From: a virus
Length of the DNA: 26,558 nucleotides
Direction: 5' to 3' (one strand)
Virus record (IMG/VR): IMGVR_UViG_3300042691_043805
Location: 1 to 26,558 of that record
Shown: positions 644 to 20,139 of the stretch, one piece after another
Layout of the letters: each line of letters starts with the position of its first letter
How positions within the stretch are numbered: the stretch's first letter is position 1
The notes under the pieces: model-generated
The model's input: only the letters and a program-made list of their open reading frames with translations
Databases searched by the model: none
Told to the model about the DNA's origin: nothing
Program-made: the position numbers and the translations under genes

Positions 644-717
644 TGGCATAAGGCTTTAGGTCAAATCTGGCCGCGGCGGTTTGCCCTAAACTCTTGGTAT
701 TCAAGAACTTAGAGCGA
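644..717. repeat. tandem-hairpin intergenic element, copy 1
   Basis: A diverged copy of the region's double-hairpin element: ATAAGGCTTTAGGTCAAA, a GC-rich core (CTGGCCGCGGCGG), then CCCTAAACTC and a second arm ending GAACTTAG. It lies between the stop of the 728-1225 gene and the promoter at 575-602. Confidence 0.6.
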
Positions 718-2567: not shown

Positions 2568-2628
2568 CAGTTTCTTGCTGACTACGCCCACGCCGCCCAA
2601 ATCCGCAGGATTACCTGAGACAGACAAA

Positions 2629-2700
2629 TGACCCCACAGGGAATCGAACCCTGATTCTCGGAGCGAAAATCCGATTTCCTAACCGTTAGAAGATGGGGCC
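2629..2700 (-). tRNA. tRNA-Glu (anticodon UUC)
   Basis: A full cloverleaf on the minus strand. Acceptor GGCCCCA pairs with TGGGGTC (one G-U pair). The D-arm is TTC/GAA around TAACGGTTAG. The anticodon arm is TCGGA-TTTTCGC-TCCGA, giving anticodon TTC. The T-arm is CAGGG-TTCGATT-CCCTG, and the discriminator is A. CCA is not encoded. It would read GAA, a very common codon in the AT-rich structural genes of this window, so it may support late translation. The 5' 22 bases are also the 3' end of the overlapping 2679-2849 gene. Confidence 0.95.
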
Positions 2701-2849
2701 AAAACCGGCTCTATTCTCAAATCACTACCAAACTTGTCTTTAGCCTTACGCCAAGCATCATACTGACTAAATGATACAACATAGCCAACGAATCGGCCAT
2801 GCTGAAACACTCTCCACGACATTCCGGCAAGACATTGAGCGGTGGTCAT
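2679..2849 (-). CDS. hypothetical protein, 56 aa, running into the tRNA
   Basis: It starts MTTAQCLAGMSWRVFQHGRF at 2849, preceded by TAAGGAGAAAG. The longer frame with ten more residues has no ribosome site, and its first codons sit upstream of the predicted transcript start. The pattern of W, F, V and Y residues around HGRFVGYVVSFSQYDAWRKAKDKFG suggests a small beta-hairpin-plus-helix protein of the kind that aligns codes or adapters, but I recognise no family. The last seven codons, including the TAG stop, lie in the tRNA-Glu sequence. Promoter: 2869-2896. Confidence 0.7.
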   Translation of the reverse strand: MTTAQCLAGMSWRVFQHGRFVGYVVSFSQYDAWRKAKDKFGSDLRIEPVLAPSSNG

Positions 2850-3522: not shown

Positions 3523-3606
3523 ATCTAAGTCTATATGCCACAACACTTTACGTCAAATTTTCGGCCGCGGCCGTGCCCTAAGTGCTTACGCACAAAGGGT
3601 TTACGG
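3523..3606. repeat. tandem-hairpin intergenic element, copy 4
   Basis: CTAAGTCTATATGCCACAAC and CTTTACGTCAAA are followed by a TCGGCCGCGGCCG core, then CTAAGTGCTTACGCACAAAG and GGTTTACGG. It sits just past the stop of the 3617-3850 gene. Confidence 0.75.
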
Positions 3607-4374: not shown

Positions 4375-4456
4375 TGTAAGTTGTTGGCTCATAAGGGTTT
4401 ACGTCAAACTCGCGGGCGCGGCCTTGGCGTAAAGTGTTACGCAGCAAGGCTTTACA
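4375..4456. repeat. tandem-hairpin intergenic element, copy 5
   Basis: TGTAAGTTGTTGGCTCATAA and GGGTTTACGTCAAA are followed by a CGCGGGCGCGGCC core, then GGCGTAAAGTGTTACGCAGC and AAGGCTTTACATC. It lies between the 4457-4771 gene and the promoter at 4309-4336. Confidence 0.8.
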
Positions 4457-4771
4457 TCAACCTCCCACAACCATCCCCTCTATAAAGGGGTATTCCTTAC
4501 CGTTCAGTTTTACGAACCATTCGTACTTGTGCTGGTACACGCGAACGGGGCTATACTGGTTGATTCTATCCTTGGTGGTACTGGTTTGCCAACCCCCAGT
4601 CTGGAGGGTATAGGTATTGTCAGGATGAATCTTTACCACATGGGTACTGTGGAGCAAGATACCAACCGACCCATCATCTAGGATTTCAGCGTAGGTGTTG
4701 TTGCCTACCTTGCGGCTATTCTTATTCAGCATCTTGCCACGAACCATAGAAACCGCTTCAGAGTGAGTCAT
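4457..4771 (-). CDS. conserved hypothetical phage protein, 104 aa
   Basis: A beta-rich protein with the run SVGILLHSTHVVKIHPDN, then TYTLQTGGWQTSTTKDRINQ. This pattern (NTYAE..DGS, H.T.VV..HPD, TL.TGGW.T.TTKDRIN) resembles a widespread small phage/plasmid protein of unknown function. AAAGGAAAAG precedes the ATG at 4771. Near the C-terminus a CCCCTTTATAGAGGGG palindrome is read in frame as PFIEG. Monocistronic, from the promoter at 4807-4835. Confidence 0.75.
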   Translation of the reverse strand: MTHSEAVSMVRGKMLNKNSRKVGNNTYAEILDDGSVGILLHSTHVVKIHPDNTYTLQTGGWQTSTTKDRINQYSPVRVYQHKYEWFVKLNGKEYPFIEGMVVGG

Positions 4772-4806: not shown

Positions 4807-4835
4807 ATTCTACAGGCCAAAACTTTAGTTGTCAA
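4807..4835 (-). promoter_or_regulatory. sigma70-like promoter
   Basis: TTGACA (4830-4835), 17-nt spacer, TAGAAT (4807-4812), followed by GTCGATATAAG in the transcript start region. Two other promoters (6313, 7244) share that downstream sequence. Confidence 0.75.
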
Positions 4836-4863
4836 TAACAAAATAAAAGATTTTTGGACTTAT

Positions 4864-4945
4864 CGTAAGTCATTGTGAAATAAGACTTTACGTCAAATTT
4901 TCGGGCGCGTCCTCGTCGTAAGTCCTTATACGACAAGGGTTTGCG
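4864..4945. repeat. tandem-hairpin intergenic element, copy 6
   Basis: CGTAAGTCATTGTGAAATAA and GACTTTACGTCAAA are followed by a TCGGGCGCGTCC core, then CGTAAGTCCTTATACGACAA and GGGTTTGCGTC. It lies downstream of the micro-gene at 4946-5011. Confidence 0.8.
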
Positions 4946-5011
4946 TCATTTAGTTTTAGAGTCGTTCATTTTCTTCAAGGCTTCTACGATCATAGGAATA
5001 CCAGAGAACAT
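4946..5011 (-). CDS. micro-protein, 21 aa
   Basis: MFSGIPMIVEALKKMNDSKT plus a final Lys, then TGA. It is amphipathic and helix-forming by appearance. AGGAG lies about ten bases before the ATG. It is last in a four-gene micro-operon (5326 to 4946). At this length the call rests on the ribosome site and operon position only. Confidence 0.45.
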   Translation of the reverse strand: MFSGIPMIVEALKKMNDSKTK

Positions 5012-5024
5012 TTTTTATAGTCTC

Positions 5025-5102
5025 CTAGGAGTTTACCACCCACGCCGCGATACATCCGAAGACAAACGCAATAGATAGAACAATAGCATCTCCGTCTTTC
5101 AT
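5025..5102 (-). CDS. single-span membrane micro-protein, 25 aa
   Basis: MKDGDAIVLSIAFVFGCIAA followed by WVVNS and TAG. Almost the whole chain is one transmembrane helix behind a short charged N-terminus. AAAAGGA, encoded in the end of the previous gene, supplies the ribosome site. Start and previous stop are two bases apart. The third gene of the micro-operon. Function unknown; small membrane proteins of this kind may affect host membrane processes, which is inference. Confidence 0.55.
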   Translation of the reverse strand: MKDGDAIVLSIAFVFGCIAAWVVNS

Positions 5103-5104
5103 GC

Positions 5105-5212
5105 CTAATCCTTTTTTACTGGAAAAACCAGATCAGAAACAACCCAAACACAAACAAAGCCAATAACAAGTCCAGCACAGAAACTATTCCAGTCTATAAA
5201 TATATCGGCCAT
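5105..5212 (-). CDS. single-span membrane micro-protein, 35 aa
   Basis: MADIFIDWNSFCAGLVIGFV leads into CVWVVSDLVFPVKKD. A helix of about 20 hydrophobic residues (11-31) ends in a positive KKD tail. GGAG is seven bases before the ATG at 5212. It lies between two other membrane micro-genes, 15 bp after one stop and 2 bp before the next start. No family recognised. Confidence 0.6.
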   Translation of the reverse strand: MADIFIDWNSFCAGLVIGFVCVWVVSDLVFPVKKD

Positions 5213-5227
5213 CCTTGGCTCCATTCT

Positions 5228-5326
5228 TTAAAGATTAATGTCTAGAGTTTCCATCACCCAAGATATAAAACAAGTAAGACCAACAATGCCAGCCATTCCC
5301 AAACCCCACATAACAAGGTCAGTCAT
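5228..5326 (-). CDS. single-span membrane micro-protein, 32 aa
   Basis: MTDLVMWGLGMAGIVGLTCF followed by ISWVMETLDINL. It is one membrane helix with Gly-spaced faces (GxGMxGIxG). GGGAG precedes the ATG at 5326, and the promoter at 5351-5379 is directly upstream. First gene of the four-gene micro-operon. Too short for database-style recognition; the operon context and ribosome site support it. Confidence 0.6.
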   Translation of the reverse strand: MTDLVMWGLGMAGIVGLTCFISWVMETLDINL

Positions 5327-5350
5327 TTCTGTATCACTCCCTTTATTACC

Positions 5351-5379
5351 ATTCTACACTACAAAAGGCTTTTTGTCAA
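5351..5379 (-). promoter_or_regulatory. sigma70-like promoter of the micro-protein operon
   Basis: TTGACA (5374-5379), 17-nt spacer (AAAAGCCTTTTGTAGTG), TAGAAT (5351-5356). Confidence 0.8.
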
Positions 5380-5446
5380 GCCCGACTATCTGGCTGACTA
5401 TAGCCCACCTTGCCAATCCGATAGGATCGGCTGATACAATCCCCTC

Positions 5447-5635
5447 TCAGGTGGCATGGATAAACACTTGTTCGCTTACAGTTTTGTTAGTTACAGTTAC
5501 GATCCAGTTTTTACCACTACCATCTTCACGCATGATAGCATTGATGATGCCTACATGGGCGTTACCCTTTGGGTCGATCACGCTACCATACTTGCCACTT
5601 CGCATAGATGCCAGAATCTTATCCAGACTATTCAT
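5447..5635 (-). CDS. hypothetical protein, 62 aa
   Basis: Begins MNSLDKILASMRSGKYGSVI and continues DPKGNAHVGIINAIMRED, with a strand-rich end (WIVTVTNKTVSEQVFI). The shape suggests an N-terminal helix and a small beta-sheet. I chose the ATG at 5635 over an upstream GTG because of a GAGGAGGAG ribosome site. The start overlaps the stop of the upstream membrane micro-gene (TGATG), so the two are coupled. Family not recognised. Confidence 0.7.
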   Translation of the reverse strand: MNSLDKILASMRSGKYGSVIDPKGNAHVGIINAIMREDGSGKNWIVTVTNKTVSEQVFIHAT

Positions 5636-5757
5636 CAGCACTCCTCCTCATAGAAAGAAATAGCAGCGTTCACACATTGACTGAAAGCATAGGTGATCCA
5701 AGCACACACACTCAGATAGGCCACCAGAGTCATCCAATCATTGAAAGTCAGAGCCAT
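5635..5757 (-). CDS. single-span membrane micro-protein, 40 aa
   Basis: MALTFNDWMTLVAYLSVCAW followed by ITYAFSQCVNAAISFYEEEC. A hydrophobic helix runs from about residue 9 to 27, with an acidic end. CGAAAGGG is the ribosome site and the promoter at 5781-5809 is just upstream. Its last codons (GAGGAGGAG) double as the ribosome site of the next gene. Confidence 0.65.
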   Translation of the reverse strand: MALTFNDWMTLVAYLSVCAWITYAFSQCVNAAISFYEEEC

Positions 5758-5780: not shown

Positions 5781-5809
5781 ATTCTACCGAAACTTTTTCT
5801 GGTTGTCAA
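5781..5809 (-). promoter_or_regulatory. sigma70-like promoter, AAAAAGTTT-spacer family
   Basis: TTGACA (5804-5809), 17-nt spacer with AGAAAAAGTTTCGG, TAGAAT (5781-5786). The TGA stop of the upstream gene (5806-5808) is inside the TTGACA. Confidence 0.8.
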
Positions 5810-6461: not shown

Positions 6462-6473
6462 TATGCTCATTCG

Positions 6474-6560
6474 TCGTAAGTCGTTATGCAGCAAGGGTTT
6501 ACGTCAAAAACGCGGCCGAAAATTCGTCGTAAGTCCTTATACCACAAGGATTTACGTCGA
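6474..6560. repeat. tandem-hairpin intergenic element, copy 7
   Basis: Among the best copies, with copy 8: CGTAAGTCGTTATGCAGCAA and GGGTTTACGTC, a CGCGGCCG core, then CGTAAGTCCTTATACCACAA and GGATTTACGTC. Each half folds as CGTAA..CCTT / AAGG..TTACG. Confidence 0.85.
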
Positions 6561-6566
6561 ATCGTT

Positions 6567-6580
6567 GTACACTAGTGTAC
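6567..6580. repeat. 14-bp perfect palindrome GTACACTAGTGTAC
   Basis: Identical to the palindrome at 7503-7516 and placed the same distance after a hairpin element. A two-fold-symmetric protein-binding site is a likely use. Confidence 0.7.
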
Positions 6581-6586
6581 GTTTGT

Positions 6587-6796
6587 TTACACCCCATATT
6601 TGGGGGGATAACTACCCATCCATACCATGTGGTCACGATACCCCTTCGCATGGGGGGTGCCATGCCTCTTCCGGATGAGCCGAAGTTGAGCAGCAAGCGT
6701 ACCCCTATAAATGGGGGATGGGTCACGCTGAATCCATTCTCCAATCCACTTATTCGCGGGAACCGCCACGAGCAACCGATGGTCGAAAACTTGCAT
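6587..6796 (-). CDS. hypothetical protein, 69 aa, with in-frame C/G hairpins
   Basis: MQVFDHRLLVAVPANKWIGE is followed by a basic body (LRLIRKRHGTPHAKGYRDHM). Three CCCC..GGGG mini-hairpins are read in frame, giving PSPIYRG, TPHAKG and YPPKYG at the C-terminus. AAAAGG lies eight bases before the ATG at 6796. It starts 13 bp after the stop of the 6810-6998 gene, so it shares the promoter at 7026-7054. Family not recognised. An overlapping 81-codon frame at 6499-6744 lacks a ribosome site. Confidence 0.6.
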   Translation of the reverse strand: MQVFDHRLLVAVPANKWIGEWIQRDPSPIYRGTLAAQLRLIRKRHGTPHAKGYRDHMVWMGSYPPKYGV

Positions 6797-7398: not shown

Positions 7399-7411
7399 AT
7401 TGCGATTTGTT

Positions 7412-7496
7412 ATAAGTCGTTATGCAATAAGGGTTTACGTCAAAAACGCGGGCGAAAATTCGTCGTAAGTCCTTATGCCACAAGGATTTACGTCGA
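7412..7496. repeat. tandem-hairpin intergenic element, copy 8
   Basis: ATAAGTCGTTATGCAATAAG and GGTTTACGTC, a CGCGGGCG core, then CGTAAGTCCTTATGCCACAA and GGATTTACGTC. Nearly identical to copy 7. Confidence 0.85.
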
Positions 7497-7502
7497 ATCG
7501 CT

Positions 7503-7516
7503 GTACACTAGTGTAC
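7503..7516. repeat. 14-bp perfect palindrome, second copy
   Basis: GTACACTAGTGTAC, identical to 6567-6580 and likewise directly after a hairpin element. Confidence 0.7.
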
Positions 7517-7522
7517 GTTTGT

Positions 7523-7849
7523 TCACCCCTCCGAAAAGGGGGATACTTCCTCTCCGCAGGCGAGAATCGCGGCGTACTGATCCGCGAGAGCAGCCACCCT
7601 TTCGGGGGATCCCGGCTTGCCAACCTTCACGATCATGAGATCATCACCCCCCTTGTAGCGGGGGTCGGCCTTCTCTACTGTCGCACCCCCCTTGCGGAGG
7701 AGAGCCTTGCGATTAAACTTGAGAATCTTTTCCGAACGAATCGGGCCATACTCCCCACTTGCGAGGGATGGCTGGTGAGGGATTGCGATTCCCAGAAAGA
7801 TACCGCGGGCCTGTCGCTTTGCATCTTCGATGATCTGAAACTTTGTCAT
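7523..7849 (-). CDS. hypothetical protein, 108 aa, with in-frame C/G hairpins
   Basis: MTKFQIIEDAKRQARGIFLG starts a helical N-terminus. The rest is Gly/Pro/Lys-rich. Four short C-run/G-run palindromes are translated in frame (LRKGG, DPRYKGG, GSPERV and the end SPFSEG), so part of the length may come from small repeat insertions. AGGAAAAG is the ribosome site before the ATG at 7849, and the promoter is at 7880-7908. No family recognised. Confidence 0.65.
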   Translation of the reverse strand: MTKFQIIEDAKRQARGIFLGIAIPHQPSLASGEYGPIRSEKILKFNRKALLRKGGATVEKADPRYKGGDDLMIVKVGKPGSPERVAALADQYAAILACGEEVSPFSEG

Positions 7850-11062: not shown

Positions 11063-12049
11063 ATGAAAACAGCAATTATCACAGGAATAACAGGACAAGA
11101 TGGTAGTTATTTAGCAGAAAATTTATTAGAAAAAAACTACAAAGTTATTGGACTTTACAGAAGATCAAGCACCAATACATTTAACAGAATAAAACATATA
11201 AATAATTCTAATTTTATTTTACAAGAGTATGATATTACTGATCCTAGTGGATGTGTTCATTTAATATCATCGATACAGCCAGACGAATTTTATAATTTAG
11301 CTGCCCAGAGTCATGTCGGCACAAGTTTCAACCAACCAACAGCAACATTCGAGATTAATGCTATTGGTGTTATTAATGTATTAGAAGCTATTAGATTATT
11401 TTCAAAACATACTAAGTTTTACCAGGCTAGCACCAGCGAAATGTTTGGGCGAAACTATTCTATAGATGCTAATGGAAATAAATATCAAAACGAAGATACT
11501 TCTTTGTTGCCACAAAGTCCATATGCTGTGGCTAAACTTGCTAGTCATCGAATGGTTCAAATATATCGTGAGGCATATGGATTATATTGTTGTAGCGGAA
11601 TTCTGTTTAATCATGAAAGTCCTCGTCGTGGAGAAAATTTTGTAACGCGCAAAATAACAAAATATATCTCAGAATTATTCAATAACAAAACTGATCAAAA
11701 ACTTAAACTGGGTAATATTAAAGCATTCAGAGATTGGGGACACGCTAAAGATTATGTTGAGGCCATGAGACTAATGATCTCTTGTGACAAAGCTGATGAT
11801 TTTGTTATTAGCACAGGACAGTGTCATAGCGTAGAAGACTTTTTAAGTATAGCTTTTAATCATATAGATAAAGATTGGCATGATTATGTTGAGATAGATC
11901 CTAATTTATATAGGCCAGCAGAAGTAGACTATCTTAAAGGAGATTCAAGCAAAGCAAAAATATTATTGGGTTGGGAGCCTAAAATATCATTTGAAACATT
12001 GGTTAAAGATATGGTCACTCAAGATATCGAATTTCTACAAAATGCTTAG
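11063..12049 (+). CDS. gmd: GDP-mannose 4,6-dehydratase, 328 aa
   Basis: An NAD(P)-binding Rossmann start (ITGITGQDGSYLAE, Gly8-x2-Gly11-x2-Gly14) and the short-chain dehydrogenase catalytic set are present: Ser/Thr and Glu in ASTSEMFG (about 122-129) and Tyr154 and Lys158 in SPYAVAKLASHRM. NHESPRRGENFVTRKI (about 193-208) is typical of GMD. It converts GDP-D-mannose to GDP-4-keto-6-deoxy-D-mannose, the precursor of GDP-fucose, GDP-rhamnose and similar sugars used in surface glycans. GGAG in the last codons of the previous gene is the ribosome site. It is near full length (about 330-370 aa in the family). In a phage it may alter host surface sugars; that is inference. Confidence 0.95.
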   Translation: MKTAIITGITGQDGSYLAENLLEKNYKVIGLYRRSSTNTFNRIKHINNSNFILQEYDITDPSGCVHLISSIQPDEFYNLAAQSHVGTSFNQPTATFEINAIGVINVLEAIRLFSKHTKFYQASTSEMFGRNYSIDANGNKYQNEDTSLLPQSPYAVAKLASHRMVQIYREAYGLYCCSGILFNHESPRRGENFVTRKITKYISELFNNKTDQKLKLGNIKAFRDWGHAKDYVEAMRLMISCDKADDFVISTGQCHSVEDFLSIAFNHIDKDWHDYVEIDPNLYRPAEVDYLKGDSSKAKILLGWEPKISFETLVKDMVTQDIEFLQNA

Positions 12050-12317
12050 AAACTTTAATGATCCTGAATATAAAAAATGGAGAAATAAGATTTACGCAAG
12101 AGATAACCATAAGTGTCAATGGCCAGGGTGTTCTAATAAAAAAAAGTTAAATGCTCATCATATTCGTCGGTGGGCAGATTGTCCGGGACTCAGGTTTGAA
12201 GTTGATAACGGAATAACCCTATGCAGAGATCACCATAAAATGATTACTGGTGTAGAAACTTATTACGAGGCAGTTTTTTATAATATCATAAAACAGAAGC
12301 CTAAAAATGATAAATAA
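12042..12317 (+). CDS. HNH endonuclease, 91 aa
   Basis: Zinc-binding Cys25 and Cys30 (CQWPGC) and Cys61/His64 (CRDHH), with the HNH core AHHIRRW (His39, His40) and DNGITLC (Asn56). This is the compact type that nicks or cuts DNA. In phages such genes often sit beside terminase genes and are needed for packaging cleavage or act as homing nucleases. The ATG at 12042 overlaps the gmd stop by 8 bp. The longer frame begins within gmd and lacks family residues. There is no strong SD, so translation is probably coupled. Confidence 0.9.
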   Translation: MLRNFNDPEYKKWRNKIYARDNHKCQWPGCSNKKKLNAHHIRRWADCPGLRFEVDNGITLCRDHHKMITGVETYYEAVFYNIIKQKPKNDK

Positions 12318-12795
12318 TAATACTTATAATAATTTTACGATTATAATAGACACACGAGAACAACAGCCGTGGAGTTTTGAGCATCATGCAACGGCTCATA
12401 AAAAACTAGATACTGGTGATTATAGCATAGAAGGACTGGAAAGCATTCTTACCATCGAAAGAAAAAAGAGTGCCAGTGAATTTGCTACTAATATAGTAGA
12501 GAGCAGATTCAAAGATGTTATTATGCGCTTGAGTCAATTTAAATATTCATTTTTATTATTAGAATTTAATTTAGAAGATTTATTAATATATCCTATAGGC
12601 AGTACTGTGCCTAAAAAAATGTGGGATAAAGTTAAAATTACTCCAGCTTTTTTAGTTAAAAATATACTTGAATTACAATTAAATCATAATATTAAAGTTA
12701 TTTTTTGTGGTAATGCCACTAGTGCTGAAAAAATAGCTGAATATATATTTAAAAAAATACATTATGTTGAAATGGTAAAAAAAACAGATGCCTAA
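12307..12795 (+). CDS. ERCC4-type nuclease, 162 aa
   Basis: IDTREQQPWSF (about 14-24), LDTGDYSIEG (34-43) and TIERKKSASEF (49-59) are the ERCC4/XPF nuclease motifs, with Asp15, Asp38, Glu51 and Lys53 as likely metal and catalytic residues. The family cuts branched or single-strand/double-strand junction DNA. Only the nuclease domain is present, with no HhH tail, as is common in phage members. It overlaps the HNH gene by 11 bp and the terminase gene by 8 bp. A role in processing replicated DNA before packaging is likely. Confidence 0.9.
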   Translation: MINNNTYNNFTIIIDTREQQPWSFEHHATAHKKLDTGDYSIEGLESILTIERKKSASEFATNIVESRFKDVIMRLSQFKYSFLLLEFNLEDLLIYPIGSTVPKKMWDKVKITPAFLVKNILELQLNHNIKVIFCGNATSAEKIAEYIFKKIHYVEMVKKTDA

Positions 12796-14812
12796 TAATA
12801 CTGATATATCTTTTGACGACGCATGGTTAGGACTTGGTGATTTATCATCATTGAGCTTACCAAGCAATGTAATGATACACAGGTCCGAAAGAGATATTGA
12901 ATTTCCAGATCTTCATTTGATGCGAATTTTAAAAAATCCTAAATATATTGGAAGTATGGTTAAATTATTATTTAATATAGAATTGCATCCTATGCAGGTT
13001 GTAATTTTACAAGAATTTTGGATACGTCCATTCCCAATGTATATTGCTAGTCGTGGTTGGGGTAAGTCCTTCTTATTAGCCTTGTATTGTGTTATAAAAT
13101 GCACATTTTGTCCCGGTACAAAAATAGTTGTAGTTGGTGCCGCTTTTCGTCAAAGTAAAATTATTTTTGAGTATATGGAAACTATTTGGCGAAATAGTCC
13201 TATATTAAGAAGTATTTTTAATGGAAATGATGATGGTCCTAGACGAGATGTAGATAGATGTACTATTAGACTTGGTGATAGTTGGACTATAGCGATACCT
13301 ATGGGTGACGGTAGTAAAATTAGAGGTCTTAGAGCACATATTATTATTGCTGACGAATTTGCATCTATAAGTCCTGATATTTATGAAACAGTAGTTTCCG
13401 GATTCGCTGCTGTTAGTGCTAGTCCTATACAAAATGTTAAAGAGCAAGCTAAAAAGAAAGCTATGATAGATGCCGGTATATGGAATGAAGAACTAGAAGT
13501 GTTAAATACCAAAATGGGTAATCAAGCAATAATTTCTGGTACCGCCGACTATGATTTTAAACACTTTGCCAGCTATTGGAAAAGATACAAATCTATTATA
13601 GAGAGCAAGGGAGAAAAATCTAAATTAGAAGAAATTTTTAAAGGTGAAGTTCCAGATAACTTTAATTGGAGAGATTATAGCATTATTCGTATTCCTTATG
13701 AGCTAATTCCAAAAGGATTTATGGATGATAAACAAGTAAGTAGAGCGAAAGCAACTATTCATACTGGAATATACAATATGGAATATGCTGCTTGCTTTGT
13801 TAAGGATAGTGAAGGATTCTTTAGAAGAAGCTTAATTGAAAGTTGTGTTGTTTCTAATAAAGAAATTATTATCGATAATAAAAGAATTTTATTTGATGCT
13901 ATCGCACAAGGAGACCCAAGTAAACAATACATATATGGCATAGACCCTGCTAGTGAACAAGATAATTTTAGTATAGTTGTATTAGAAGTAAATCCGACGC
14001 ATTCTAAAATAGTGTATTGTTGGACTACTAATAGAGCTAATTTTAAAGAGCGTCAAAAAACAGGTTTAATTACGGAACATGATTTTTATGGATTCTGTAC
14101 TCGTAAAATTAGAAATTTGATGAAAACCTTTAAGCCCTTAAGGATAGGAATGGATGCCCAGGGCGGAGGAGTGGCTATAGAAGAATCTTTACACGATCCA
14201 AATAAATTAGAAGACGGAGAGCTTTTAATTTGGCCAATTGTAGACGAGGATAAAAGCAAAGATACGGATGCTCAAACCGGATTACATATTCTTGAATTAG
14301 TACAGTTCGCGAAAGCCGATTGGACTAGTCAAGCTAATCACGGTCTTCGAAAAGATCTAGAAGATAAAACGTTGTTATTTCCATCTTTTGATAATTTAAC
14401 TCTAGGATTAGCAATAGAAAAAGAAGGTAAAAATATATTAGAAGCAGATTTAAATCCATTATATGATAATGTTAGTGAATGCATATTAGAAATAGAAGAA
14501 CTAAAAAATGAATTAACAACAATAGTTATGACACAAACTAGTAATGGGCCAAATGCCAGAGATAGATGGGACACGCCAGAAACAAAACTTGGTCACGGGA
14601 AAAAAGGCAGACTTAGAAAAGATAGATATAGCTCTTTATTAATAGCTAATATGTTAGCTAGACAATTTACAAAAGTATTAAAACCCATAGATTATGATGT
14701 TATAGGAGCGAATGCTAGAGATCAAGTAAAAAATAATGGGAGTATGTACAAAGGGCCAGAGTGGTTTACTAATAATGCTAATGATGATATTTATACTGGA
14801 ATTTATAGATAA
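12788..14812 (+). CDS. terminase large subunit, 674 aa
   Basis: ATPase: Walker A SRGWGKS (88-94), Walker B IIIADE (185-190, catalytic Glu190), coupling motif SGT (249-251). Nuclease: GIDPASEQD (383-391, Asp385) and GMDAQGGG (453-460, Asp455), with further acidic residues near the C-terminus. It cuts concatemeric phage DNA and pumps it into the prohead. Its length matches T4-type large terminases. The start overlaps the ERCC4 stop by 8 bp. The portal gene follows after a 57-bp gap with candidate late-promoter sequences. Confidence 0.95.
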   Translation: MPNNTDISFDDAWLGLGDLSSLSLPSNVMIHRSERDIEFPDLHLMRILKNPKYIGSMVKLLFNIELHPMQVVILQEFWIRPFPMYIASRGWGKSFLLALYCVIKCTFCPGTKIVVVGAAFRQSKIIFEYMETIWRNSPILRSIFNGNDDGPRRDVDRCTIRLGDSWTIAIPMGDGSKIRGLRAHIIIADEFASISPDIYETVVSGFAAVSASPIQNVKEQAKKKAMIDAGIWNEELEVLNTKMGNQAIISGTADYDFKHFASYWKRYKSIIESKGEKSKLEEIFKGEVPDNFNWRDYSIIRIPYELIPKGFMDDKQVSRAKATIHTGIYNMEYAACFVKDSEGFFRRSLIESCVVSNKEIIIDNKRILFDAIAQGDPSKQYIYGIDPASEQDNFSIVVLEVNPTHSKIVYCWTTNRANFKERQKTGLITEHDFYGFCTRKIRNLMKTFKPLRIGMDAQGGGVAIEESLHDPNKLEDGELLIWPIVDEDKSKDTDAQTGLHILELVQFAKADWTSQANHGLRKDLEDKTLLFPSFDNLTLGLAIEKEGKNILEADLNPLYDNVSECILEIEELKNELTTIVMTQTSNGPNARDRWDTPETKLGHGKKGRLRKDRYSSLLIANMLARQFTKVLKPIDYDVIGANARDQVKNNGSMYKGPEWFTNNANDDIYTGIYR

Positions 14813-19119: not shown

Positions 19120-20139
19120 ATGTCAGCCAAAACCGAAAGATTTCAGCCAACACCAGAATTAACAGATCTTCTAATGCGTTCTGGTTCGGCTAACAGAGAG
19201 ACCGCGCTTGCTGCTAATGCAGAATTTGCAAAAGCTCTTGAGCTTCCTCTTCGTAAGGGTATTCTTAGTGGTGATGTTCTTGATGGTATTTTCGAGCCAA
19301 TCCAATTAGCTCAAAGTGCTACTCCAGAATTTCCACTCGATTTCTTAGCTCCAGGAACAGAGAAAGACTTTGTTGCCTATACAATCCCAAATCATGGCTA
19401 TATTCCAGAGCGCCATGTTGAAGGCGATTACGTCATGGTTCCAACCTATGATGTTGGTGCTAGTATCGATTATCTTCTAAAGTATGCTCGTGACGCCCGC
19501 TGGGACGTTGTTGGTCGTGCTATGGAAGTTCTAGAAGCTTCTTTTGTTAAGAAGATGAATGATGATGGCTGGCATACACTTCTTGCTGCTGGTGTTGATC
19601 GTAATATCGTTGTATACGATAGCGATGCTAATGCTAGTCAGTTTACAAAGCGTTTAGTCAGTCTCATGAAAACTGTTATGCGTCGTAACGGCGGTGGTAA
19701 CAGCACATCAAATAACAGAGGCTTACTAACTGATCTTTATGTTAGTCCAGAAGCTATGGAAGATATCCGTAATTGGGGTATCGATCAAGTTGATGAAGTA
19801 ACACGCAGAGAAATTTATACTGCTAATGATGGAGCCATCAATAGAGTATTCGGTGTTAACCTCCATGACCTTGATGAGCTAGGTGTTGGCCAACAATACC
19901 AACTATTCTACACTTCCTCAACAGGAGGCTTAGGAGCATCGCTACCATCTGGTAAAACAGAAATAGTTGTTGGTCTTGATCAACGTAAGAGAGATAGCTT
20001 TATAATGCCAATTCGTCAAGAAGTTCAAATCTTCGAAGACGAAACATTACATCGCCAAAAGAGAGCTGGTTTCTACGGTTGGGCAGAGCTTGGCTTTGCT
20101 GTTCTTGATAATCGTAGAGTTCTAATTGGTGCTCTATAA
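19120..20139 (+). CDS. major capsid protein, 339 aa
   Basis: Size, position (after scaffold and decoration genes) and motifs fit an HK97-fold capsid protein: an N-terminal helical arm, an E-loop-like stretch (YIPERHVEGDYVMVPTYDVG, about 107-126), a long spine helix (RWDVVGRAMEVLEASFVKKM) and a C-terminal P-domain (RQEVQIFEDETLHRQKRAGF). AAGGGAG is a strong ribosome site and codon use is rich in CGT and GGT, as expected for the most abundant virion protein. A terminator follows. Confidence 0.85.
   Translation: MSAKTERFQPTPELTDLLMRSGSANRETALAANAEFAKALELPLRKGILSGDVLDGIFEPIQLAQSATPEFPLDFLAPGTEKDFVAYTIPNHGYIPERHVEGDYVMVPTYDVGASIDYLLKYARDARWDVVGRAMEVLEASFVKKMNDDGWHTLLAAGVDRNIVVYDSDANASQFTKRLVSLMKTVMRRNGGGNSTSNNRGLLTDLYVSPEAMEDIRNWGIDQVDEVTRREIYTANDGAINRVFGVNLHDLDELGVGQQYQLFYTSSTGGLGASLPSGKTEIVVGLDQRKRDSFIMPIRQEVQIFEDETLHRQKRAGFYGWAELGFAVLDNRRVLIGAL

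What the first reader, a model, noticed from the sequence alone, without database searches (positions are those of the whole stretch)
4946..5757. Cluster of single-span membrane micro-proteins
Within 810 bp there are four single-helix membrane proteins of 25-40 aa (5025, 5105, 5228, 5635) plus a 21-aa peptide, each with its own ribosome site, in two promoter-led units. Such a dense set is easily missed by gene callers and could act on the host membrane.
Basis: partly seen in the sequence, partly recalled or inferred. Interest (0 to 1): 0.65.

Follow-up and report, generated by a model that had tools for sequence, protein, structure and literature searches.

The report
Phage operon of tiny membrane proteins
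An uncultured large lake phage carries two small, swappable gene units that encode four membrane proteins of only 25-40 amino acids and a 21-residue peptide; all are conserved real genes without a convincing match in the protein-family libraries searched, probably made early to act on the host membrane, though their exact job is unknown.

Summary
On the minus strand at 4946-5757 lie two units, each with a promoter matching consensus at 11 of 12 bases. Unit 2 encodes S32, S39, S25 (single-span) and the 21-aa S21. S39 truly starts at 5212 (35 aa, not 39). Shuffled sequence gives 0.10 such membrane micro-ORFs on average and never four. All five have frame-preserved relatives and no broken copy was found; pN/pS is 0.12 for S21 and 0.49-0.59 for S32, S25, S40. 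S39-S25 is a tight pair in 36 of 42 distinct S39 loci, with an invariant GxxxG motif; the genes in front of S39 are exchanged. [quoted passage not shown] No PHROG, Pfam or PDB family matches convincingly. Most likely these are early proteins that pack with each other or with a host membrane protein; the target is inferred, not shown. Extra lead: S39's membrane segment has frozen synonymous sites and a conserved nested +1 ORF of 20 aa.

The parts
5781..5809 (-). promoter of unit 1 (TTGACA-N17-TAGAAT)
   Evidence: 11/12 consensus; conserved with the unit in L237/L238
5635..5757 (-). S40, 40-aa single-span membrane protein, first gene of unit 1
   Evidence: 26 different homologous proteins; pN/pS 0.59, CI 0.48-0.69; one helix, pLDDT 92.6
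5447..5635 (-). S62, 62-aa soluble protein, start overlaps the S40 stop by one base (TGATG)
   Evidence: homologues at 61-94% in dozens of loci; strong SD AGGAGG
5380..5446 (-). stem-loop spacer between unit 1 and unit 2
   Evidence: hairpin GCCGATCC-TATC-GGATTGGC; folding z only -1.4; sequence diverges right after the S62 stop in L237/L238
5351..5379 (-). promoter of unit 2 (TTGACA-N17-TAGAAT)
   Evidence: 11/12 consensus; the same motif lies before S32 in relatives
5228..5326 (-). S32, 32-aa single-span membrane protein; short form of a family reaching 72 aa
   Evidence: 6 proteins on 7 contigs; pN/pS 0.49, CI 0.26-0.90; alignment A3
5105..5212 (-). S39, 35-aa single-span membrane protein with GxxxG (corrected start 5212)
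   Evidence: found on 50 viral contigs; GxxxG in 42/42 distinct sequences; helix 2-29
5116..5178 (-). candidate nested +1-frame ORF inside S39 (GTG start, 20 aa, hydrophobic); tentative
   Evidence: GTG/TTG start in 37/41 and 20-aa length in 33/41; +1-frame pN/pS 0.38; class rates; simulation ambiguous
5025..5102 (-). S25, 25-aa single-span membrane protein, starts 2 nt after the S39 stop
   Evidence: 38 proteins; pN/pS 0.54, CI 0.39-0.70; next to S39 in 36 of 42 distinct loci
4946..5011 (-). S21, 21-aa peptide, last gene of unit 2
   Evidence: 86-100% identical on 16 contigs; pN/pS 0.12, CI 0.03-0.25
4836..4945 (-). stem-loop and dispersed-repeat spacer after unit 2 (10-bp stem, core TTTGACGTAAA)
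   Evidence: one of 7 dispersed copies; folding z -3.2 for 4840-4960 and -2.8 for the interval; hairpin follows the cassette in most relatives
4807..4835 (-). promoter of the next unit (N104)
   Evidence: 11/12 consensus
4457..4771 (-). N104, 104-aa soluble protein of the Kyano_Gp96 family; neighbour that in relatives often heads the S39-S25 operon
   Evidence: PF23790 E 3.8e-11, above cut-off; order N104 then S39-S25 in L182, L195, L145 and others

Best explanation
Two exchangeable, promoter-led units in the early-type arm of an uncultured large phage encode four genuine single-span membrane micro-proteins, a 62-aa soluble protein and a 21-aa peptide. SHOWN by sequence: the ORFs are conserved in frame; S39-S25 is a tight pair to which S21 and different upstream genes are added; unit borders coincide with promoters and stem-loop spacers. 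INFERRED: host RNA polymerase transcribes the units soon after DNA entry; the closely spaced cistrons are translated together; S39 and S25 (with S32, perhaps S21) insert into the inner membrane and pack through GxxxG/small-xxx-small faces with each other or with a host membrane protein, altering its activity (host takeover, exclusion of other phages, or anti-defence). The swapping of parts fits a host-facing arms race rather than a core phage function.
For: Conservation in frame and purifying selection. S39-S25 adjacency in 36/42 loci and GxxxG in 42/42; conserved small-xxx-Gly-Cys in S25. Single helices predicted. Eleven minus-strand promoters of at least 11/12 in the left arm, against one antisense match beyond 9600. 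Unit 1 conserved exactly from promoter to S62 stop in L237/L238. Exchange of upstream genes with the previous stop most often 15 nt before S39. At most one S39 match per large record.
Against: No expression, localisation or interaction data; no host. Families match no characterised protein, so the host-facing role is an inference from size, position and turnover. Early timing is inferred from promoter type only. pN/pS of S39 is not clearly below 1 (0.57-1.16).
Confidence: 0.55

Rival explanations
1. Lysis function: the tiny membrane proteins are pinholin/antiholin-type lysis regulators.
For: Small hydrophobic proteins in neighbouring cistrons; one S39 member has a weak PHROG holin match (E 0.096).
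Against: They lie on the strand and under the promoters of the small-gene arm, away from structural genes; single-span, 25-40 aa; the match is at chance level; no endolysin was seen next to them.
Confidence: 0.12
2. Toxin-like micro-proteins: membrane-depolarising peptides comparable to type I toxins (TisB, Hok), used to stop host growth.
For: Size and hydrophobicity match such peptides (own knowledge); SPO1 takeover genes often slow growth (PMC6873191).
Against: No antisense RNA or antitoxin was looked for or seen; conserved packing motifs and the fixed two-protein pairing suggest a specific complex rather than a non-specific pore.
Confidence: 0.15
3. Shuffling is the point: the micro-genes are largely neutral passengers of recombining promoter/stem-loop cassettes.
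For: Cassettes are rearranged among relatives; several genes come and go.
Against: Purifying selection, strongest in S21 (pN/pS 0.12), and no broken copies.
Confidence: 0.1
4. S39 is a dual-coding locus in which the +1 frame of the membrane segment also encodes a 20-aa hydrophobic peptide, so unit 2 makes one more membrane peptide than the reader listed (compatible with the best explanation).
For: Synonymous divergence of S39 0.28 against 0.63 for S25 in the same 34 genomes; +1-frame pN/pS 0.38; rates NN 0.13, SN 0.22, NS 0.37, with SN far above NS in S25, S40 and S21; conserved start and stop; Val14 always GTG while Val26/Val30 are nearly always GTT; no conserved RNA structure over the segment.
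Against: A tree-based null without frame-0 selection is not rejected (P 0.07 and 0.16); no convincing ribosome site for the GTG; absent in the divergent L177, and no such constraint in the distant S39-like clade.
Confidence: 0.3

Closest known systems
SPO1 host-takeover module of Bacillus phage SPO1 (PMC6873191)
   Same: Cluster of mostly small early genes in short operons with strong promoters and ribosome sites
   Different: Here several consecutive genes are 21-40 aa and single-span; unrelated sequences; activity untested
PeSL (promoter-early stem-loop) cassettes of T4-like phages (Arbiol 2010; Comeau 2014; known here through PMC4503421)
   Same: Promoter plus stem-loop spacers between small-gene units whose order changes between relatives
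   Different: Not a T4-like backbone by terminase; the stem-loops lack a clear T-run and not all are significant
Phage small proteins catalogued from genomes (review PMC11323111)
   Same: Phage genes under 100 aa of unknown function, often unannotated
   Different: No convincing PHROG match for these families; a defined coupled pair with exchangeable partners
Bacterial single-span micro-proteins such as the 27-aa YohP (PMC7549839)
   Same: Essentially one membrane helix of similar length
   Different: Phage-encoded, clustered, under promoter-led phage units; no sequence relation tested or claimed
T4 Imm-type superinfection exclusion proteins (own knowledge)
   Same: Small phage membrane proteins made early
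   Different: Imm is longer with two spans; no sequence match found in the libraries searched

Membership tests
PeSL cassettes of T4-like phages | early-type promoter between exchangeable small-gene units | tested here: met
   eleven minus-strand promoters of at least 11/12; same motif in relatives; rearranged cassettes
PeSL cassettes of T4-like phages | stem-loop terminator joined to the promoter | tested here: inconclusive
   stem-loop spacers present, folding z from +0.8 to -5.6 over ten intervals, mostly no T-run
PeSL cassettes of T4-like phages | T4-like phage backbone | tested here: not met
   terminase finds no T4-like phage among 41 matching records; capsid protein matches only Bacillus phage G at 21%
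SPO1-type host-takeover module | cluster of small genes with own promoters and ribosome sites | tested here: met
SPO1-type host-takeover module | early expression and inhibition of host processes | not testable with these tools
   needs a host and expression data
Holins | sequence match to a holin family | tested here: not met
   no significant Pfam or PHROG match; best holin match E 0.096
Holins | timed membrane lesion releasing an endolysin | not testable with these tools
   needs expression assays
Superinfection-exclusion membrane proteins | blocks entry of a second phage | not testable with these tools
   needs phage challenge in a laboratory strain
Type I toxin-like membrane peptides | growth arrest and an antisense or adjacent antitoxin | not tested
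   no antisense RNA search was made

The most novel reading that the evidence does not exclude
S39 is an overprinted locus: its membrane segment also encodes, in the +1 frame, a second conserved 20-residue hydrophobic peptide (GTG start at 5178, stop at 5116), so one 108-bp gene yields two membrane peptides inside a micro-operon that shuffles between phages.
Probability: 0.3. Interest if true: 0.65.

Novelty: new member of a known kind. Interest (0 to 1): 0.45.

Why it matters
Five protein families of 21-40 aa, spread over dozens of lake-phage contigs, are near or below the size limit of gene callers and have no convincing PHROG or Pfam match. They show that the exchangeable small-gene arm of a large uncultured phage lineage carries coupled membrane micro-proteins. 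The conserved S39-S25 pair with its GxxxG motif is a compact, testable candidate for a phage effector on the bacterial membrane, and S39 could be a very small case of overlapping genes.

Tried and rejected
Nucleotide search of the region in cultured phages: no match. psbA as a host clue in 14 large relatives: none. Terminase in GTDB genomes: only three MAG contigs of unrelated phyla, so no host call. Pfam hit of S40 to MitoNEET_N (E 0.0013) is below its cut-off and was rejected as a hydrophobic chance match. PDB profile matches at E 2 rejected. The apparent N-terminal extension of S25 in L043/L069 was rejected: that stretch encodes an S39-like protein in another frame and the extension frame shows no constraint. 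RNA structure as the cause of the frozen S39 sites: only 4 pairs, near the ribosome site. A broad S40 alignment and the single S40 protein were too variable or too short to scan with; a two-member alignment worked. The PeSL papers themselves are not held.

Full report
WHAT THE WINDOW IS. The window is a whole 26,558-base virus record. Its plus-strand right part holds the terminase large subunit (12788-14812), a portal-sized protein, the capsid protein (19120-20139) and fibre-like proteins. The left 9.4 kb is coded on the minus strand, is richer in G+C, and consists of small genes. Terminase relatives of up to 95% identity lie on IMG/VR contigs of up to 244 kb. Cultured phages match the terminase only at about 24-32%, so this is an uncultured lineage; its host is unknown.

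THE OBSERVATION. All five ORFs exist with ribosome sites and two 11/12 promoters. Four membrane micro-ORFs compare with 0.10 expected, and none of 2000 shuffles reached four. The start of S39 should be 5212: in relatives the conserved protein begins MADI or MVDI right after the ribosome site, and the 39-aa reading begins inside that site. Unit 1 also encodes the 62-aa S62.

THEY ARE REAL GENES. Profile searches over 233 loci found 39 different S39, 38 S25, 26 S40, 8 S21 and 6 S32 proteins. tblastn gave no hit outside an intact ORF. pN/pS with bootstrap intervals: S21 0.12 (0.03-0.25), S32 0.49 (0.26-0.90), S25 0.54 (0.39-0.70), S40 0.59 (0.48-0.69), S39 0.81 (0.57-1.16). S39 lies on 50 viral contigs, S21 on 16, S32 on 7. 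Large records hold at most one S39 match (9 of 15 have one). AlphaFold2 gives single helices for S40 and S39. S39 has GxxxG in 42 of 42 distinct sequences and S25 a conserved small-xxx-Gly-Cys, patterns typical of helix packing.

ORGANISATION. S39 is followed by S25 in 36 of 42 distinct loci, with the S25 start between -8 and +13 nt of the S39 stop where it could be placed. S21 follows S25 in 11 distinct clusters and S32 precedes S39 in 7. Other loci have other genes in front of S39: N104 (Kyano_Gp96-like), other short membrane proteins, or longer ones ending in a stretch like DEDGTRWLVGYKKD; the previous stop is most often exactly 15 nt from the S39 start. The window's 32-aa S32 is the short form of a family that reaches 72 aa in L176. 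Unit 1 is conserved in L237/L238 from the promoter to the S62 stop and diverges on both sides; in L199/L239 a 53-aa membrane gene is inserted between S40 and S62. In L011/L094 the S39 cassette and N104 stand in another order. Stem-loop spacers and a dispersed repeat with the core TTTGACGTAAA separate units. Promoters with at least 11/12 matches occur eleven times on the minus strand of the left arm; beyond 9600 there is one, antisense to its gene.

MECHANISM. Shown: conserved, closely spaced, exchangeable membrane micro-genes under host-like promoters. Inferred: early expression, insertion in the inner membrane, association through the glycine face with each other or with a host membrane protein, and a host-facing role (takeover, exclusion or anti-defence). 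Lysis is less likely because of location and lack of a holin match. Nothing here identifies the target.

THE S39 ANOMALY. In the same 34 genomes synonymous divergence is 0.28 in S39 and 0.63 in S25. In the membrane segment the +1 frame has pN/pS 0.38 and frame 0 has 0.95. Substitutions silent in frame 0 but not in +1 are rarer (0.22) than the reverse (0.37), while S25, S40 and S21 show the opposite. A 20-aa +1 ORF keeps its length in 33 of 41 and a GTG/TTG start in 37 of 41. Tree-based simulation rejects frame-0-only coding if frame 0 is under ordinary selection (w of 0.5 or less, 0 of 300) but not if it is free (P 0.07); the distant S39-like clade shows no such effect. A nested gene is a lead, not a result.

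KNOWN RELATIVES. It works like the small-gene takeover module of SPO1 (PMC6873191) and appears to shuffle like the PeSL cassettes of T4-like phages (named in PMC4503421; originals not held), but it is filed as a member of neither: the T4 backbone test was not met and SPO1-like activity was not testable. No micro-protein matches Pfam, PHROGs or PDB convincingly.

VERDICT. A correct and useful observation: new micro-protein families in a known kind of phage small-gene region, with the function inferred only.

Noticed in passing
window 5116-5178 (-): Nested +1-frame ORF inside S39 with conserved start, length and hydrophobic sequence; S39 synonymous sites are unusually frozen.
   Followed up: partly
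window 648-706, 2931-2989, 3540-3598, 4391-4449, 4880-4938, 6491-6549, 7427-7485: Dispersed 59-nt intergenic repeat family (64-100% alike) with a stem-loop and the core TTTGACGTAAA, between small-gene units of the left arm.
   Followed up: partly
window 6469-6606 and 7405-7542: 138-nt intergenic segment present twice at 88% identity.
   Followed up: no
L184:5095-5367 (+) and L187:5095-5382 (+): S25 is extended to 90-95 aa there and ends its helix in a lipobox-like VSGC or ISGC, so it may be a lipoprotein in those phages.
   Followed up: no
L176, L169, L092, L174, L226: promoter before S32: The -10 box ends only 8-9 nt before the S32 ATG, which would give a leaderless or nearly leaderless mRNA.
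   Followed up: no
L199:3613 onward (+): A 53-aa membrane micro-gene (MKNWICYNLFGDHPDD..) is inserted between S40 and S62; the window lacks it.
   Followed up: partly
window about 9400: Coding strand and base composition switch together: left arm 0.41-0.47 G+C on the minus strand, right arm mostly 0.29-0.42 on the plus strand.
   Followed up: no
window 2628-2701 (-): tRNA-Glu (TTC) among the small-gene units.
   Followed up: no
window 11063-12049 and 12307-12795 (+): Nucleotide-sugar epimerase and ERCC4-type nuclease genes lie next to the terminase.
   Followed up: no
window 4457-4771 (-): N104 belongs to Kyano_Gp96 (PF23790), also found in Synechococcus, Caulobacter and Pseudomonas phages, and in relatives often heads the S39-S25 operon.
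   Followed up: partly
L234, L235, L236: Contigs of this phage group are binned into alphaproteobacterial, flavobacterial and SAR202 MAGs; probably binning errors, not host evidence.
   Followed up: no
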